Shown piece after piece: positions 18,261 through 50,179 of a DNA stretch of 64,000 nt. The notes beneath the pieces are model-generated. The model did not search any database and was not told where the DNA came from. It worked only from the letters and a program-made list of their open reading frames with translations. Position 1 is the stretch's first letter. Each line of letters opens with the position of its first letter. A program made the position numbers and the translations under genes. This DNA comes from Candidatus Gastranaerophilales bacterium (GTDB lineage Bacteria > Cyanobacteriota > Vampirovibrionia > Gastranaerophilales > Gastranaerophilaceae): NCBI GenBank assembly GCA_944322725.1, contig CALUPU010000001.1, positions 186,001 through 250,000 on the forward strand, written 5' to 3'.

Positions 18261-18968
18261 ATGCACAAATTTATTATTACAGCTTTGTCTCTGGCTGTTA
18301 TGTTCGCATCAACATTGCAGGAAGGGTACTGCGGAATTTTAGATAACAGATATGATGAAGACACAACAATATCACAGATTTATGAAAAAATGTCACCTGC
18401 TATTGTTTTGATAGAAGCTGATGTTAAAGAGGGACTCTCAAGCGGAACAGGCTGTATTATAGACCCTACAGGACTTATTCTGACAAGTTCACATGTTGTA
18501 TCAGGTGCACCGTCAGTGCAGGTCACTATTTCAACAGGAGAAGTCTTTAAAGGCGAAATTGTCTCTGTTATGGGCAAAGATAATGATCTTGCATTGCTTA
18601 AAATAAATGCAAAAAAAGCGCTTCCCGTTATAGAACTCGGTGACTCTGAAAAGGTTAAGGTAGGTCAAAAAGTTCTGGCCATAGGCAATCCGTTTGGCTT
18701 CAACAATACACTGACAACAGGAATCGTATCAAGGATTGATTACACAAAAAATAAAATTCAAACTGACGCTGCAATAAATCCGGGTAATTCCGGCGGTCCG
18801 ATTATTAATATTCACGGAGAGGTTATTGGTATCAGCCAGTCTATTTATAATCCGGACAACAATATATCAAATATCGGCATCGGGTTTGCCGTGCCGATAA
18901 ATGAAGCTAAAAACTTTATAAAACTTTCCATGTCTAATTCCAAAACTTTGAAATCAGCAACTAATTAG
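18261..18968 (+). CDS. Exported DegP-like serine protease without PDZ domain
   Basis: A 235-residue trypsin-fold protease of the S1C (HtrA/Deg) group. A signal peptide (about 1-24) is followed directly by the protease domain with the catalytic triad H78 (SSHVV), D109 (NDLALL) and S177 (GNSGGP). The protein stops soon after the domain, so the PDZ domain that normally controls DegP-type enzymes is missing. It probably degrades damaged or specific proteins in the envelope. It is convergent with the small coiled-coil gene, stop codons five bases apart. A GAGGAG ribosome site precedes the ATG. Confidence 0.9.
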   Translation: MHKFIITALSLAVMFASTLQEGYCGILDNRYDEDTTISQIYEKMSPAIVLIEADVKEGLSSGTGCIIDPTGLILTSSHVVSGAPSVQVTISTGEVFKGEIVSVMGKDNDLALLKINAKKALPVIELGDSEKVKVGQKVLAIGNPFGFNNTLTTGIVSRIDYTKNKIQTDAAINPGNSGGPIINIHGEVIGISQSIYNPDNNISNIGIGFAVPINEAKNFIKLSMSNSKTLKSATN

Positions 18969-18973
18969 CTTGT

Positions 18974-19297
18974 TTAGTATTTAAATGAGCGCTCGATATT
19001 CTTTTGCAGCATTTGCTCACAGGACTGATATTCTGTATCAATCATTTTCAGTTTGTTCTGATATTGCTGCATCTGCATATCGAGTTTCTTTTCCATTTGA
19101 TTTAAACGTTCTTTACGGGCTTCCAGTTTTTTTACCATCGGATCGTCAGAGTCAAGGTCTGTACCGACATTTAACAAGTCTGTACAGGTCTTTGACAGAT
19201 TCATTTTTGCTTCGGTAATCAACTGTATTTTATACTCAAGGTCAAGCCTGTAAGCATTTAAATACATTAATCTCAGTTGTGACGTTGCCATTCCCAT
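18974..19297 (-). CDS. Short MGMATSQ-family coiled-coil protein
   Basis: A 107-residue, helical protein. It begins MGMATSQLRLMYLNAYRLDL and ends in a coiled coil finishing ...LQKNIERSFKY. Both ends match the larger proteins at 20783 and 21991 and the short one at 49874, so it is a minimal member of that family with no central domain. The middle carries a DSDDP motif (about 49-53) also seen as ESDP in the 49874 protein. A GGGTGG ribosome site precedes the ATG. There is no signal peptide or membrane segment. Function unknown; see the family finding. Confidence 0.8.
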   Translation of the reverse strand: MGMATSQLRLMYLNAYRLDLEYKIQLITEAKMNLSKTCTDLLNVGTDLDSDDPMVKKLEARKERLNQMEKKLDMQMQQYQNKLKMIDTEYQSCEQMLQKNIERSFKY

Positions 19298-19321
19298 AAC
19301 GGGCCCACCCTTATCTAGTAG

Positions 19322-19594
19322 TTATCTTTGGATATTGAGCTTGTTTCCGCGTAAGAAAACGTGCTCGTTGTTTTCGGCAATAAGCTGTTCCATCTGGTTC
19401 AGTTTGTACATCTGATAATTAACTCTGTATTTGGCCATTTTGAGTTTTCTGTTCATAGTCAAATAGTCTTTTATCATTGCAACAATCTGTGACGCAAATG
19501 CCTGCACAGGATTATGCCTTCTAAAATAAGCCATTAAGTAGCCAAAGAAGTTTACTATTTTTTGCAAGTTTGTCATTAAAGCGTCTTGAAACAA
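19322..19594 (-). CDS. Small hypothetical protein with probable TTG start
   Basis: About 90 residues, basic and helical, with no recognised domain. The open frame reaches a GTG at 19612, but AAGGAG lies six bases before a TTG at 19594, a better initiation site; translation from there begins (M)FQDALMTNLQKIVNFFGYLM. The C-terminal half (KLKMAKYRVNYQMYKLNQME) is a probable coiled coil. It sits between the two small family members of the MGMA(A/T)SQ cluster and is probably cotranscribed with the 107-residue gene 24 bases downstream. Function unknown. Confidence 0.6.
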   Translation of the reverse strand: MFQDALMTNLQKIVNFFGYLMAYFRRHNPVQAFASQIVAMIKDYLTMNRKLKMAKYRVNYQMYKLNQMEQLIAENNEHVFLRGNKLNIQR

Positions 19595-19921
19595 TATCGA
19601 CTCCTTGTCCACTACTTGGACCTACATAACTATAAAAACAGAACACTCAATATAATTGCCTTATATAGAAAATCTTTTAATATTTCTTAATATATGAAAT
19701 TTATATTTGAACTGTCTGCTGCTTTTAAAAAGGCAAGACAGTCCTTGTGTTCTGTATTATTAGTCGACATAATTTCATTATTCTTGAATATATTTGGGTG
19801 ATAAATGAAGGAATTGTAATAAAAAGTTACAATTCTCTTTAAAAGAGAAAAAATAAAAAATCTGTCAAATACGGTAGAATTAAAAGTTCTTATGTAAGTT
19901 CGATTCATATAGTTCCTGTTA
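19595..19921. other. Intergenic stretch with hairpins, no convincing gene
   Basis: This AT-rich stretch between the 275-residue and 90-residue genes contains two adjoining inverted repeats, GAATTGTAA/TTACAATTC at 19811-19835 and TTCTCTTT/AAAGAGAA at about 19833-19849. A leftward frame of 73 codons (19687-19908) crosses both hairpins, has no ribosome site and resembles nothing, so it is not called. The hairpins may end the transcript of the Gly-rich gene or belong to its 3' region. Confidence 0.4.
19811..19849. repeat. Pair of overlapping inverted repeats
   Basis: GAATTGTAA and TTACAATTC form a perfect 9-bp stem with a 7-base loop; the right arm runs directly into a second dyad, TTCTCTTT/AAAGAGAA. 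No T-tract follows on the minus strand, so a terminator role is uncertain. Confidence 0.5.
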
Positions 19922-20749
19922 TTACATATTCTGGACTTGTTTGCTGTCGCTATCTATAGAGTCTTTGAGCATTTTCTTAACGATATCACCCTGTGTATCA
20001 AGCATTTTTACAACTGTTTCAATGTTTCTAACTTTATTGGAGAGAATTGTATCAGCGTTAGATAAAATGCTTCCTGAAATATTCTGATATGCTGCAAGAC
20101 CTGCAGAGGATGTACCCTGCAATAAGTTGCCGAGTACAGTAGCACCAAGACCAAAACTGCCCATATAAGGCGCCATTGCCTGCACAACGCCTGCAAAGCC
20201 GGAAACAATACCTGCAGTCGGCAATACCCAGCTTGTTCCGGGTACACCGAATCCGGAAGCCACACCTGCACCGTATGCAGCCGCGTTAAGCCCGACTGAA
20301 CCGCCTATGCTGCTTGCTGAATACAAACTGGATGCTCCGCCTGTAACAGTACCGCCGTCATAACTTGTGTCCATGCCGAATCCCCACGCTATCGGGGCTG
20401 CTCCGCTTGGAAAGCCGGGGTAGTTGCCAAGACCAGTTACACCAAACGCAGCACTGCCGCTGTCAAGAATAGAGTTGCCGCCGCTTATTGGAGACCAGTA
20501 TGATGTACCCGGTATGTTCATCATAGTGTTTCCGCCCATAACAGGCATAAAAGCACTCGGCGAAATTAACCTTGCAATCTGCCACAAGAAGCTGCCAGCA
20601 GTACCAAAGCCAGCACCGTCAAGGGCAGAGCCGCTGACAGTTAAATCTCTTAATCTGTCATATGTTTCAAACAGCTGTGCTTTTGCATCAGAACTTGCTT
20701 TTCCGAATTTATTTGCAATTACCAGGTATCCGTCATTTTTGTAAGACAT
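19922..20749 (-). CDS. Gly/Ala/Ser-rich structural-like protein
   Basis: A 275-residue protein with a charged helical N-terminus (residues 1-40, KAQLFETYDRLRDL), a long Gly/Ala/Ser/Pro-rich low-complexity middle (about 45-230, with runs such as GGASSLYSASSIGGSVG and AAAYGAGVASGFGVPG), and a helical C-terminus (about 230-275, VRNIETVVKMLDTQGDIVKK). No signal peptide is present. It lies in the MGMA(A/T)SQ cluster, 33 bases after the 321-residue protein. Its plan, helical ends around a flexible middle, is like its neighbours. A GAGG ribosome site precedes the ATG. Function unknown; a surface or structural role is a guess. Confidence 0.65.
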   Translation of the reverse strand: MSYKNDGYLVIANKFGKASSDAKAQLFETYDRLRDLTVSGSALDGAGFGTAGSFLWQIARLISPSAFMPVMGGNTMMNIPGTSYWSPISGGNSILDSGSAAFGVTGLGNYPGFPSGAAPIAWGFGMDTSYDGGTVTGGASSLYSASSIGGSVGLNAAAYGAGVASGFGVPGTSWVLPTAGIVSGFAGVVQAMAPYMGSFGLGATVLGNLLQGTSSAGLAAYQNISGSILSNADTILSNKVRNIETVVKMLDTQGDIVKKMLKDSIDSDSKQVQNM

Positions 20750-20782
20750 TATATCCTCACATATCTCTTAACTAACTTTTAA

Positions 20783-21748
20783 TTATTGAAATGTTTTAAA
20801 TATGTTATCAACATTTTTATCAATAACTTTTTTAACAGAATCAAGTTCCGTCTGGAGCGCTTCTTGCTCAGTATCAAGCTGTTTTAAACGAAGTTCCAGA
20901 GTTCTGTCTGTTTGCTGGAGTTCCTCTGTTTTTGCATTGATACGAGCTATTTCAGCTTCGTAATTTGCAATATCAACTCTGTATTGGTCCATTGCATTAT
21001 TATATGCCTGTTCATCATATTCCTGACCAGAAGAAAGCGTAACAGTATGTGAATATCCTGATTCATCAGTCCAGTACATTTGGTTATATAAACCTGATTC
21101 AGATTTACTTACAGTAACATTTTCAAGTTTATCGGTTACTTCTATCTGTGTTGATATCGCAGAAAATAAGTTATCAACAGTTTGTTCAGTCTTTTCTGCA
21201 ATATCGAAACCAGATTCATCAACGTTTATATAAAATCTTGTCTTGCTGACTGGATTATAGAAGGAATAATATTTATCATCTTTAGAGTTGTAATCCTGAC
21301 CGCAGGCTTCATTCATTTTGTCAATGACACTCTGGGAAGGCTCCCATTCTTCTATATCGAAAGCAGTTCCGTTTGCAAGCTGAATTTTTTCCCCGTCGTT
21401 TATTACGGTAACTTTTTGATCTGCCATACAGCCATATTGCAAAACATCCTCTTTATATTTTATATTTACTGTGTAAGTCAGAGGGTTAGAGCCAGTATTT
21501 TCTTGAATAGAAGAAACTGTGACATTGCCGTCAGAAGCTACCGGGTCACTATATGTATAAATATCAGTATAGTAATCATTTTGCGCAGGGGCAGTCGGTG
21601 CATCCAGTGTCATCAACTGTCTGAACAGACCTGCACTTTCATTAGCGAGAGCCGTTCTTTGCTGGTTGACTAGCTGACCTTCATATTCAACATTTGTTTT
21701 TCTTGCCGTTAAGCCTAAATATCTGGCTTGAGAAGCTGCCATACCCAT
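20783..21748 (-). CDS. MGMAASQ-family protein with central domain (321 aa)
   Basis: The N-terminal 60 residues (MGMAASQARYLGLTARKTNV, then EYEGQ) and the C-terminal 45 (TLELRLKQLDTEQEALQTEL, then KKVIDKNVDNIFKTFQ) are predicted helices that nearly match the 347-residue neighbour. Residues 60-250 form an acidic, Tyr/Asp-rich central region that is much less conserved and probably beta-rich. There is no signal peptide. Conserved helical ends with a divergent middle is the plan of flagellin and hook-associated proteins; the N-terminal SLTARK-type helix also recalls them, but no close match is claimed. Translation starts after GGAGACAAC. Function unknown. Confidence 0.75.
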   Translation of the reverse strand: MGMAASQARYLGLTARKTNVEYEGQLVNQQRTALANESAGLFRQLMTLDAPTAPAQNDYYTDIYTYSDPVASDGNVTVSSIQENTGSNPLTYTVNIKYKEDVLQYGCMADQKVTVINDGEKIQLANGTAFDIEEWEPSQSVIDKMNEACGQDYNSKDDKYYSFYNPVSKTRFYINVDESGFDIAEKTEQTVDNLFSAISTQIEVTDKLENVTVSKSESGLYNQMYWTDESGYSHTVTLSSGQEYDEQAYNNAMDQYRVDIANYEAEIARINAKTEELQQTDRTLELRLKQLDTEQEALQTELDSVKKVIDKNVDNIFKTFQ

Positions 21749-21928
21749 ATATGTTGTCTCCGTTCTTTCTTACTAACCTTTTAAAATTTAATTATCCTTG
21801 TGTAAATGTCACATTTTTTCTATTTTATATTAAGTTTTGTTACCCTTATTATAAGGGGTTTTCCGTCCAATTTTAAAGTCTTTTTAAACAAAAATACTCT
21901 GTTTGGAGTACTCTCAATTAAATGAAAA

Positions 21929-21976
21929 ACAGGCTTTCTTGGAGACTTTCAAGCAAATTCTTCTTCGAAAGCCTGT
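21929..21976 (-). terminator. Terminator of the 347-residue MGMAASQ gene
   Basis: A 10-bp perfect stem, ACAGGCTTTC/GAAAGCCTGT, followed on the minus strand by TTTTTC. It lies 15 bases past the stop codon of the 21991 gene and separates it from the paralogue downstream, which therefore has its own promoter. Confidence 0.75.
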
Positions 21977-21990
21977 AATTAATCGGAGTA

Positions 21991-23034
21991 TTATGCAAAT
22001 GTTTTGAATGTTTCTTCTATGTTTTTATCAATTACCTTCTTAACTGCGTCCATTTCTGTTTGAATTGCTTGTTGTTCTGTATCTAACTGGTCTAAGTGCA
22101 ATTCAAGTGTTTTATCCTGCTGCTGGATGATAGTTGTTTTTGCGTCTATATCTGCAACGGCTTTCTCATAAATAGCTTTTTCTGCTTTATATGTATCCAT
22201 TGCTTTGTTGTAGGCATCTTCGTCCTGAACAGTTTGAAGAGTGAGGGTGTATGTACGGCTTTTACCATTGGCATCTTTGCATATCATTGACTCATATCTG
22301 CCTGTACCGTCATCAGCTTTGATAAGTTGTGCACCTTCATAAACTTTAGTTTCTGTTTTTGTTGAGCCTTCTAATGTGTAAGCAAAGATATTGCCACTTG
22401 TAATTTCATCAGGAGTTGAATCTGCGCCGTTAGCCTTAATAAAATACTGAATGCCTGTTTGTGAATTAGTAAATTTAAAATAATAGTCTTCTATGTCAGG
22501 TTCAGCCGGCTTTACTGTATCTCCATCTTGTACATATTCATTATATGCTTCTTGAAATTTCTCAAACTTGCTTTTCATTTGAGTAGGACCTGTAAGGCTG
22601 TATGGTGTACCTCCATTCAGGCTAATATAATATTTACCATCTTCTTTTGTTATTGCAACAGAATCACCTGTCTGATTAGGATCAGTAACATTATTGTTAA
22701 GCAATAAAATATTACTTACATCAACAGATTTTTTTTCTGTTACGTGTACATCAGCAATGGTTTTTGAGGCATCGCTCAACGTATCATCTACATATATAGC
22801 ATCAACTGTCAAAGAGCCTGATGTAGCTGGATCAGTGAATACATATTCCGTTTTTGTATAATCTGTTGCTGCAGGAGGAGTAGGTACATCCAGTGCTAAC
22901 ATTTGATTAAACAAGCCTGCACTCTGGTTAGCCAACGCTGTTCTTTCCTGGTTTACCTGTTGACCCTGGTATTCAGTGTTGGTTTTTCTTGCCGTTAAGC
23001 TTAAGTATCTGGCTTGTGATGCTGCCATTCCCAT
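21991..23034 (-). CDS. MGMAASQ-family protein with central domain (347 aa)
   Basis: A paralogue of the 20783 protein. The N-terminus MGMAASQARYLSLTARKTNT is nearly identical, as are the following VNQERTALANQSAGLFNQ, the LDVPTPPAATDY segment and the C-terminal block LDQLDTEQQAIQTEMDAVKK with FKTF at the end. The central region (about 75-250) differs strongly in length and sequence and is rich in Asp, Thr and Lys. An AAAGGAG ribosome site precedes the ATG. It has its own terminator and sits divergent from nothing upstream, with a 254-base gap to ilvC. No signal peptide, so any export would need a dedicated pathway. Function unknown. Confidence 0.78.
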   Translation of the reverse strand: MGMAASQARYLSLTARKTNTEYQGQQVNQERTALANQSAGLFNQMLALDVPTPPAATDYTKTEYVFTDPATSGSLTVDAIYVDDTLSDASKTIADVHVTEKKSVDVSNILLLNNNVTDPNQTGDSVAITKEDGKYYISLNGGTPYSLTGPTQMKSKFEKFQEAYNEYVQDGDTVKPAEPDIEDYYFKFTNSQTGIQYFIKANGADSTPDEITSGNIFAYTLEGSTKTETKVYEGAQLIKADDGTGRYESMICKDANGKSRTYTLTLQTVQDEDAYNKAMDTYKAEKAIYEKAVADIDAKTTIIQQQDKTLELHLDQLDTEQQAIQTEMDAVKKVIDKNIEETFKTFA

Positions 23035-23136
23035 TGCTAATACTCCTTTAGTTTTTGCATATCTGTTTTTATATTCGACACTTTGTAGTAAAAACTTTAG
23101 AAATATGACTTATAATGTTAACAAATATTTACAATT

Positions 23137-49873: not shown

Positions 49874-50179
49874 ATGACTATTGGGGCTATTAACACAAGA
49901 TTGTTATCGCTGACAATGTACAAGAGTAATCTTGAGTTCAGCATAACTTCAATAACTAACAAAAGGCAGCAAATTGCATATCAAACAATGCAGTTGTCCG
50001 ATGCAGATTGGGAATCCGATCCAAGAGTGCAGCAGCTTCAAGCATATGACCAGTATCTTGAATTGCAGCAGAAAAACCTTGAGACTCAGCAAAAGGCAGC
50101 TACAAATGAGTTAGAAAGTATGCAGAAAATACTTGATACTAACGTCAAGAAAGACTTTACACTGCAACTGAATGCATAA
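49874..50179 (+). CDS. Short MGMA(A/T)SQ-family paralogue
   Basis: A 101-residue helical protein, MTIGAINTRLLSLTMYKSNL..., ending DTNVKKDFTLQLNA. An AAGGAG site lies seven bases before this ATG, so the earlier in-frame start (49706) is rejected. It aligns with the 107-residue protein at 18974 over its full length: the ESDPRVQQL segment matches SDDPMVKKL, and the last helix (NELESMQKILDTNV) matches the C-terminal helix of that protein and of the two large ones. It is a stand-alone paralogue 27 kb from the cluster. Confidence 0.75.
   Translation: MTIGAINTRLLSLTMYKSNLEFSITSITNKRQQIAYQTMQLSDADWESDPRVQQLQAYDQYLELQQKNLETQQKAATNELESMQKILDTNVKKDFTLQLNA

What the first reader, a model, noticed from the sequence alone, without database searches (positions are those of the whole stretch)
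18974..23034. A family of MGMA(A/T)SQ proteins with fixed helical ends and a variable middle, flagellin-like but without flagellar genes
Four proteins share the same ends. The large ones (21991, 347 aa; 20783, 321 aa) have nearly identical first 60 residues (MGMAASQARYL...RKTN) and last 45 (LDTEQ...VKKVIDKN...FKTF). The short ones (18974, 107 aa; 49874, 101 aa) have the same terminal helices and no middle. The central regions of the large two are strongly diverged. Axial proteins of flagella and hooks follow this plan. None of the four has a signal peptide or membrane segment, so export would need another route. Two other odd genes sit in the cluster: a 275-aa Gly/Ala/Ser-rich protein with helical ends and a 90-aa helical protein. 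Cluster and plan suggest a filament or surface structure. Seen: shared ends and plan. Inferred: filament role.
Basis: partly seen in the sequence, partly recalled or inferred. Interest (0 to 1): 0.82.

Follow-up and report, generated by a model that had tools for sequence, protein, structure and literature searches.

The report
Flagellin-like proteins without a flagellum
A family of flagellin-shaped proteins in gut relatives of cyanobacteria persists in lineages that have lost their flagella, alongside a second flagellum-type export machine, so the 'leftover flagellar genes' reported there probably build a different surface structure.

Summary
The shared ends are real. Two large proteins (347, 321 aa) and two short ones (107, 101 aa) share both termini far beyond chance. 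Among 24 orthologues the ends are 89-94% identical and the middle 40%. AlphaFold2 (pLDDT 89) gives a long N-terminal helix, an all-beta middle and a long C-terminal helix; the best PDB matches are flagellins, FlgL and hook proteins. There is no sequence homology to flagellin.

'Without flagellar genes' holds only for the window. The genome (Candidatus Gastranaerophilales) has flagellins and two export gates (two FlhA, two FliP). Of 118 genomes searched, all 94 of the order carry the family. In the 31 without flagellin, all keep one FliP and 29 keep the second-type FlhA. In five of these the same four-gene cluster lies about 2-5 kb from fliE-fliF-X-fliH-flhA. A sigma-28-type box precedes 73/141 family genes versus 24/1674 other ORFs.

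Best explanation: secreted, axial-type subunits of a second flagellum-derived type III system. Earlier papers read the incomplete flagellar gene sets of these bacteria as reduction or loss. Export and polymerisation are inferred, not shown.

The parts
21991..23034 (-). Large family member, 347 aa: conserved helix 2-47, beta-rich variable middle 60-270, conserved helix 272-346
   Evidence: ORF; conservation; AlphaFold2 model; PDB comparison
23073..23099 (-). Sigma-28-type promoter box TAAAGTTTTTACTACAAAGTGTCGAAT, 65 bases before the 347-aa start codon
   Evidence: Conserved in alignment of 17 orthologous upstream regions; enrichment; E. coli consensus TAAAGTTT-n11-GCCGATAA in PMC2859248
20783..21748 (-). 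Second large family member, 321 aa, same ends, diverged middle
19922..20749 (-). 275-aa Gly/Ala/Ser-rich cluster gene; C-terminal helix; one near-hydrophobic stretch from residue 175 (KD19 1.54)
   Evidence: Synteny; hydropathy; low-confidence single-sequence model
19322..19594 (-). 90-aa helical cluster gene (probable TTG start at 19594); orthologues often preceded by a sigma-28-type box
   Evidence: Synteny; looser box pattern upstream of 19 of 39 orthologues against 7% of all ORFs in those loci
18974..19297 (-). Short family member, 107 aa, with conserved VGxDxxxDxP motif between its two conserved ends; 70-99% identical in the nearest orthologues
   Evidence: Alignment
49874..50179 (+). Distant short family member, 101 aa (starts MTIGAINTR), away from the cluster

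Best explanation
The MGMAASQ family are exported, axial-type structural subunits of a second, flagellum-derived type III secretion system found across the Gastranaerophilales. Their conserved terminal helices would pack into a common helical core, as in flagellin D0/D1, and the fast-changing beta domain of the large members would face outward. The short member, with ends but no inserted domain, would be a needle- or rod-like element. The 275-aa and 90-aa proteins would be co-exported or accessory parts. A sigma-28-type factor (own C9:9453-10115, beside flhB) would switch the genes on late. Shown: shared ends, variable middle, sigma-28-type box, co-occurrence and gene linkage with the second gate; the fold is predicted. 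Inferred: secretion, polymerisation, surface position, which sigma factor acts, and which member sits where.
For: Two gates: flagellin-positive genomes of the order have 2-3 FliP in 60 of 63; all 31 flagellin-less ones have exactly one, where listed of the 229-240-bit type. In 29 of those 31 the best FlhA is of the second type; none shows the first type (flagellin). The family is in all 94 order genomes, median 19 matches per genome in the flagellin-less against 10 in the rest. The four-gene cluster lies beside fliE-fliF-X-fliH-flhA2 in five flagellin-less genomes; SpoA-fliO?-fliP-fliQ-fliR stand together in three. All 31 keep SpoA and FlgE/F/G-type proteins. AlphaFold2 pLDDT 89 with helix-beta-helix plan; 28 of the top 29 structural rows are flagellar axial proteins, Z 9.3-5.2. 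Ends 89-94% and middle 40% identical. Sigma-28-type box: 73/141 family genes vs 24/1674. Nearest sigma factor kept at 69-81% identity in 30 of 31 flagellin-less genomes.
Against: No sequence homology to flagellin (hhalign probability 1.8%) or to any solved chain. Structural Z of 8-9 for long helices can be a common arrangement (note). In the window's own genome the cluster is on a different contig from the flhA2 operon. The large genes of five flagellin-less genomes lack the strict box, and own flagellins lack it too, so it is not a simple flagellar-regulon mark. The C9 sigma factor scores below the curated FliA/WhiG cut-off (85 vs 189.6). The genomes are related to one another, so co-occurrence counts are not independent.
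Confidence: 0.62

Rival explanations
1. The second gate is an injectisome-like delivery system: the short protein is the needle, the large ones tip or filament parts, and the 275-aa protein a pore-forming translocator that opens a host or neighbour cell.
For: The short protein is 107 aa with two conserved ends around a conserved polar loop and ends in N-I-x-x-S/T-F. The 275-aa protein has a Gly/Ala-rich stretch with KD19 1.54 and a confident C-terminal helix. One gene cluster carries all of them. SctF needles resemble flagellin/FlgL in profile searches (PMC3459982).
Against: FliE and FlgB/FlgC-type rod genes, which mark flagella rather than injectisomes in PMC3459982, are present. FlhA2, FliI2, FliR2 and SpoA2 miss the curated SctV, SctN, SctT and SctQ cut-offs. 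No profile match to a solved needle, tip or translocator. No effector candidate was sought.
Confidence: 0.2
2. The family are ordinary accessory parts of the flagellum (extra flagellins or hook-associated proteins) exported by the flagellar gate.
For: The window's genome is flagellated; the fold resembles flagellin and FlgL; the promoter box is of the flagellar sigma type.
Against: All 31 order genomes without flagellin and without first-type FlhA keep the family, with more matches on average. Own flagellins lack the promoter box.
Confidence: 0.07
3. The second gate and the family are decaying remnants of a lost flagellum, as the literature implies.
For: Di Rienzi 2013 and Soo 2014 describe incomplete flagellar gene sets in some Gastranaerophilales as reduction or loss (PMC3787301, PMC4040986).
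Against: The gate is present in flagellated relatives as a second, separate set and is kept in the flagellin-less genomes (one FliP in 31 of 31). Ends of the family are 89-94% identical, the 275-aa protein 71-96% across the nearest 24 loci, and the ORFs are intact.
Confidence: 0.04
4. The proteins are cytoplasmic coiled-coil proteins unrelated to export, and the co-occurrence reflects shared ancestry only.
For: No signal-peptide-like or membrane stretch; weak coiled-coil profile hits only; co-occurrence within one order is not independent.
Against: Hypervariable insert between near-invariant ends, gene linkage to fliE-fliF-fliH-flhA2 in five genomes, and the sigma-28-type box.
Confidence: 0.07

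Closest known systems
Bacterial flagellin FliC and hook-associated protein FlgL (PF00669/PF00700)
   Same: Helix at each end, variable domain between; terminal helices align to flagellin D1 and FlgL (9n59 Z 8.8, 1.8 A over 106 residues; FlgL 5yti Z 8.2, 2.6 A over 119); exported by a flagellum-type gate by inference.
   Different: No sequence homology; short members lack the middle; kept where flagellin is lost; linked to the second gate.
Flagellar type III export apparatus and basal body
   Same: FlhA, FliP/Q/R, FliH/I, FliF, FliE, SpoA and rod proteins are homologous.
   Different: FlhA2, FliI2, FliF2, FliR2, FliQ2 and SpoA2 fall below the curated flagellar cut-offs, no recognisable FliG at the fliG position, and the set survives without flagellin, flagellar FlhA or the high-scoring FliM/FliN-class SpoA.
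Non-flagellar type III secretion system (injectisome; SctJNQRSTUV)
   Same: Shared core components; the short protein resembles a needle subunit in size and layout.
   Different: Misses curated SctV, SctN, SctQ, SctT cut-offs; has rod genes FliE/FlgB/FlgC; secretin not examined.
Myxococcales 'Myxo' type III system (Abby and Rocha 2012, PMC3459982)
   Same: Also first annotated as relics and later argued to be a distinct, conserved system derived from the flagellum.
   Different: Myxo systems lack FlgBC, FliE and the needle subunit; this one has rod genes and a dedicated axial-like family.

Membership tests
Flagellin (FliC) | Match to Flagellin_N / Flagellin_C sequence models | tested here: not met
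   No PF00669/PF00700 hit at E<=1 for any window member; hhalign probability 1.8% against own flagellins
Flagellin (FliC) | D0/D1-type terminal helices around an inserted variable domain | tested here: inconclusive
   Predicted plan agrees and top structural rows are flagellins and FlgL at Z 8-9.3, but the tool warns that Z below about 13 for long helices may be a common arrangement
Flagellin (FliC) | Occurs with a flagellum | tested here: not met
   Family in all 31 order genomes without flagellin and without first-type FlhA
Flagellum (second gate) | FlhA, FliI, FliF above curated flagellar equivalog cut-offs | tested here: not met
   FlhA2 694<772.1, FliI2 557.7<629.8; FliF2 108.1<129.75. 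FliP2 does pass (231.9>217.45)
Flagellum (second gate) | FliE / rod proteins present | tested here: met
   FliE 2.6e-17 in G027; FlgC, FlgB, FlgG, FlgF-type proteins on own contig C5; FlgE/F/G-type hits in all 31 flagellin-less genomes
Flagellum (second gate) | Motor: FliG, MotA/MotB | not tested
   Only the protein at the fliG position was scanned (no FliG hit); FliG and MotAB were not searched in flagellin-less genomes
Injectisome (NF-T3SS) | Core SctJNQRSTUV homologues | tested here: met
   YscJ_FliF, FliI, SpoA, FliP/Q/R, FlhA homologues; the FlhB on own contig C9 just passes the flagellar FlhB model, and which gate it serves is not known
Injectisome (NF-T3SS) | Curated Sct equivalog cut-offs | tested here: not met
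   SctV 589<692, SctN 537<604.75, SctQ 55.5<100.8, SctT 109.8<163.05, SctR 197.1<208.6
Injectisome (NF-T3SS) | Absence of FlgB, FlgC, FliE (PMC3459982) | tested here: not met
   FliE and rod-type genes present
Injectisome (NF-T3SS) | Secretin SctC | not tested
Sigma-28 regulon | TAAAGTTT-n11-GCCGATAA upstream | tested here: met
   TAAAGTTT-n11/12-G(C/T)CGA in the aligned orthologous upstream regions; 73/141 vs 24/1674; consensus from PMC2859248. Binding by a sigma factor not tested

The most novel reading that the evidence does not exclude
A third branch of flagellum-derived type III machines, neither flagellum nor injectisome, is universal in Gastranaerophilales and builds a non-motile appendage from an expanded family with invariant core helices and a hypervariable surface domain. 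It would be an adhesin-like or immune-facing filament in gut non-photosynthetic cyanobacteria.
Probability: 0.5. Interest if true: 0.9.

Novelty: new variant of a known kind. Interest (0 to 1): 0.77.

Why it matters
The incomplete flagellar gene sets of many gut Gastranaerophilales have been read as genome reduction or loss. The data here suggest instead that two export gates coexist in flagellated members and that non-flagellated members keep the second one with its own putative substrates. That gives a testable surface structure for a common, poorly cultured gut lineage related to Cyanobacteria. It also adds a possible intermediate to the question of how flagella gave rise to other secretion machines. 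A hypervariable outer domain on an invariant core would be a candidate for host contact or immune-facing variation.

Tried and rejected
Pfam, NCBIfam and PHROG scans of the family, the 275-aa and the 90-aa proteins gave only weak or coiled-coil hits. Profile searches of the PDB by sequence found nothing credible. The viral structure library gave no convincing match. The 275-aa protein was folded without an alignment by oversight; the model (pLDDT 43) is unusable and was not searched. A sigma-28-type box was looked for upstream of own flagellins, motA, flgK, hook and rod genes and not found. Class members f10-f12 have FlhA genes but no family match; their FlhA sequences group apart from FlhA2, though long branches make this tree weak and there is no outgroup. 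The idea that the gene at the fliG position is FliG was not supported by Pfam. Literature searches found no paper joining Gastranaerophilales with a second type III system; subscription papers and preprints were not covered.
Full report
WHAT IS THERE. The window holds, on the minus strand, 347-, 321-, 275-, 90- and 107-aa ORFs in a row (23034 down to 18974), plus a 101-aa ORF at 49874. The 347- and 321-aa proteins share both ends; the 107- and 101-aa proteins carry related ends without the middle (z 7 to 9 against shuffles; hhalign 94% probability over the C-terminal 38 columns). The 275-aa and 90-aa proteins do not share the N-terminus; the 275-aa protein has a slight C-terminal resemblance (z 3.8). 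The 101-aa protein starts MTIGAINTR, so the MGMA(A/T)SQ motif fits only three of the four. Elsewhere in the genome lie a 224-aa member (C3) and two near-identical 236-aa members (C9, C4). In all fetched loci, 166 ORFs match at both ends, 223 to 616 aa long, median 335 (some loci overlap).

CONSERVATION AND FOLD. In 24 orthologues of the 347-aa protein the mean pairwise identity is 0.89 at residues 1-60, 0.40 at 61-240, 0.65 at 241-300 and 0.94 at 301-347. AlphaFold2 on a 45-sequence alignment gives mean pLDDT 89.0, pTM 0.55: helix 2-47, beta strands 60-270, helix 272-346. Of the top 29 rows of the VIA-align comparison 28 are flagellar filament, FlgL, FlgK, hook, rod or cap-complex chains, with Z from 9.3 to 5.2; for example the Azotobacter filament (Z 8.8, 1.8 A over 106 residues) and Legionella FlgL (Z 8.2, 2.6 A over 119). 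One unrelated channel reaches Z 8.4, and the tool warns about long helices, so this supports a shared plan but is not proof of kinship. Foldseek alone is weak. Sequence comparison with own flagellins is negative.

THE GENOME IS NOT FREE OF FLAGELLAR GENES. Titles of related records name Candidatus Gastranaerophilales. The window's genome (1.9 Mb, 95.6% complete) has eight Flagellin_N-domain hits (an FlgL-type one included), rod and hook genes, FliM, FliN, MotA/B-like genes, and two full FlhA genes, on contigs C12 and C16, plus a protein with only the FlhA cytoplasmic part. The C12 FlhA scores 868 bits and the C16 one 724 against Pfam. The C16 operon carries FliF, a 326-aa protein, FliH, FlhA2 and FliI2. 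FliP is also present twice, 262 and 232 bits.

CO-OCCURRENCE. The same 118 genomes were searched with the family profile and six other queries. All 94 genomes of the order, own included, carry the family; so do five of the other class members (families f9, f14). Of the 94, 31 lack flagellin. None of the 31 has the high-scoring FlhA; 29 have the second type (one, G065, shows only low-scoring partial matches; one, G052, is 63% complete and has none). All 31 have exactly one FliP, 1-2 SpoA and 2-7 FlgE/F/G-type matches. Family matches per genome have a median of 19 in these 31 and 10 in the 63 others; matches are not gene counts and the first look is capped, so this is only a trend. Five class families (f8, f10-f13) have no family match; some of them do have an FlhA.

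LINKAGE. In five flagellin-less genomes (G027, G028, G059, G064, G070) the order is: large MGMAASQ gene, 275-aa homologue, 90-aa homologue, short family gene, a ~200-aa gene on the other strand, one or more unrelated genes, then fliE, fliF, a ~338-aa gene, fliH, flhA2. In three genomes SpoA, a FliO-like ORF, FliP, FliQ and FliR stand together. Own contig C5 has a matching set: FliE-like ORF, lytic transglycosylase, FlgC, FlgB, FlgG- and FlgF-type proteins. In the window's own genome the cluster and the flhA2 operon are on different contigs.

WHAT KIND OF GATE. FlhA2, FliI2, FliR2, FliQ2 and SpoA2 score below the curated cut-offs of both the flagellar and the injectisome models, while the other FliI of the same genome passes the flagellar one. 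FliF2 misses both. FliP2 passes the flagellar FliP model, and the C9 FlhB just passes the flagellar model. Rod genes are present, which separates it from injectisomes as defined in PMC3459982.

REGULATION. Upstream regions of 17 orthologous 347-aa genes align with a block TAAAGTTT-n11/12-G(C/T)CGA, the E. coli sigma-28 consensus being TAAAGTTT-n11-GCCGATAA (PMC2859248). The strict pattern occurs within 200 bases upstream of 73 of 141 family genes and 24 of 1674 other ORFs; several of those 24 are the 90-aa cluster gene. The genes are related, so the Fisher p-value (6e-69) overstates the evidence; at least the 347-aa group, the 224-aa group and several other-genus groups share the box. Of the flagellin-less genomes, G039 (a 286-aa member) and G070 (90-aa gene) keep a strict box; G027, G028, G059 and G064 have a TAAAGTTT...CCGT variant before the 90-aa gene. 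Own flagellins do not have it. The FliA/WhiG-like sigma gene next to flhB on C9 is present at 69-81% identity in 30 of the 31 flagellin-less genomes.

RELATION TO WHAT IS KNOWN. [quoted passage not shown] Soo 2014 (PMC4040986) reads the subsets as loss of functional flagella. The present data fit better with two machines. No held paper found proposes this.

MECHANISM, WITH STATUS. (1) A sigma-28-type factor turns on the family: box shown, factor inferred. (2) The second gate exports them: co-occurrence and linkage shown, export inferred. (3) Conserved helices assemble on the rod into a tube with the variable domain outside: fold predicted, assembly inferred. (4) Function at the surface, such as adhesion, host contact or delivery: speculation.

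Noticed in passing
L010:6359-7069 (C9) and L011:6927-7637 (C4), own genome: Two 236-aa family members differ by about one residue and share about 60 bases of near-identical upstream DNA although their wider surroundings differ: a recent duplication or transposition of the gene.
   Followed up: no
L027:17882-19342 (own contig C3): A 486-aa soluble protein holds only the FlhA cytoplasmic part (PF00771 positions 303-654, E 2.3e-53). Most flagellin-less relatives also show a second FlhA match that may be this gene.
   Followed up: partly
L025:8508-9326 (own contig C16): A 272-aa diverged flagellin relative (Flagellin_N 9e-15, Flagellin_C 1e-7) lies about 4 kb from fliI2 and flhA2; it scores far below the curated flagellin models.
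   Followed up: partly
L047:8956-9636 (own contig C5): A lytic transglycosylase (SLT, 1.7e-33) sits between the FliE-like and FlgC-like genes of the second rod set, a plausible wall-piercing enzyme for the second machine.
   Followed up: no
L185:13378-14955 and L010:7276-7830: EF-hand-like proteins (D-x-D/N-x-D-G motifs) lie beside family genes in two genomes; the 525-aa one in flagellin-less G063 has a sigma-28-type box.
   Followed up: no
window 18261-18968 (+): A trypsin-like serine protease with a signal-peptide-like start (Trypsin_2, 1.3e-31) ends 5 bases from the end of the 107-aa gene, convergent with it.
   Followed up: no
L083:7233-7868, L085:4186-4848, L087:9408-9983, L090:3334-3951, L091:6572-7216: A roughly 200-aa gene of unknown family (N-terminal (T/S)(E/D)GVGKKIVEALK-like) flanks the cluster on the opposite strand in all five flagellin-less loci.
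   Followed up: no
L133 (CASFTO010000001.1): A contig titled Alphaproteobacteria carries a family gene with the same length and the same upstream box as L130 of Gastranaerophilales; probably a binning error.
   Followed up: no
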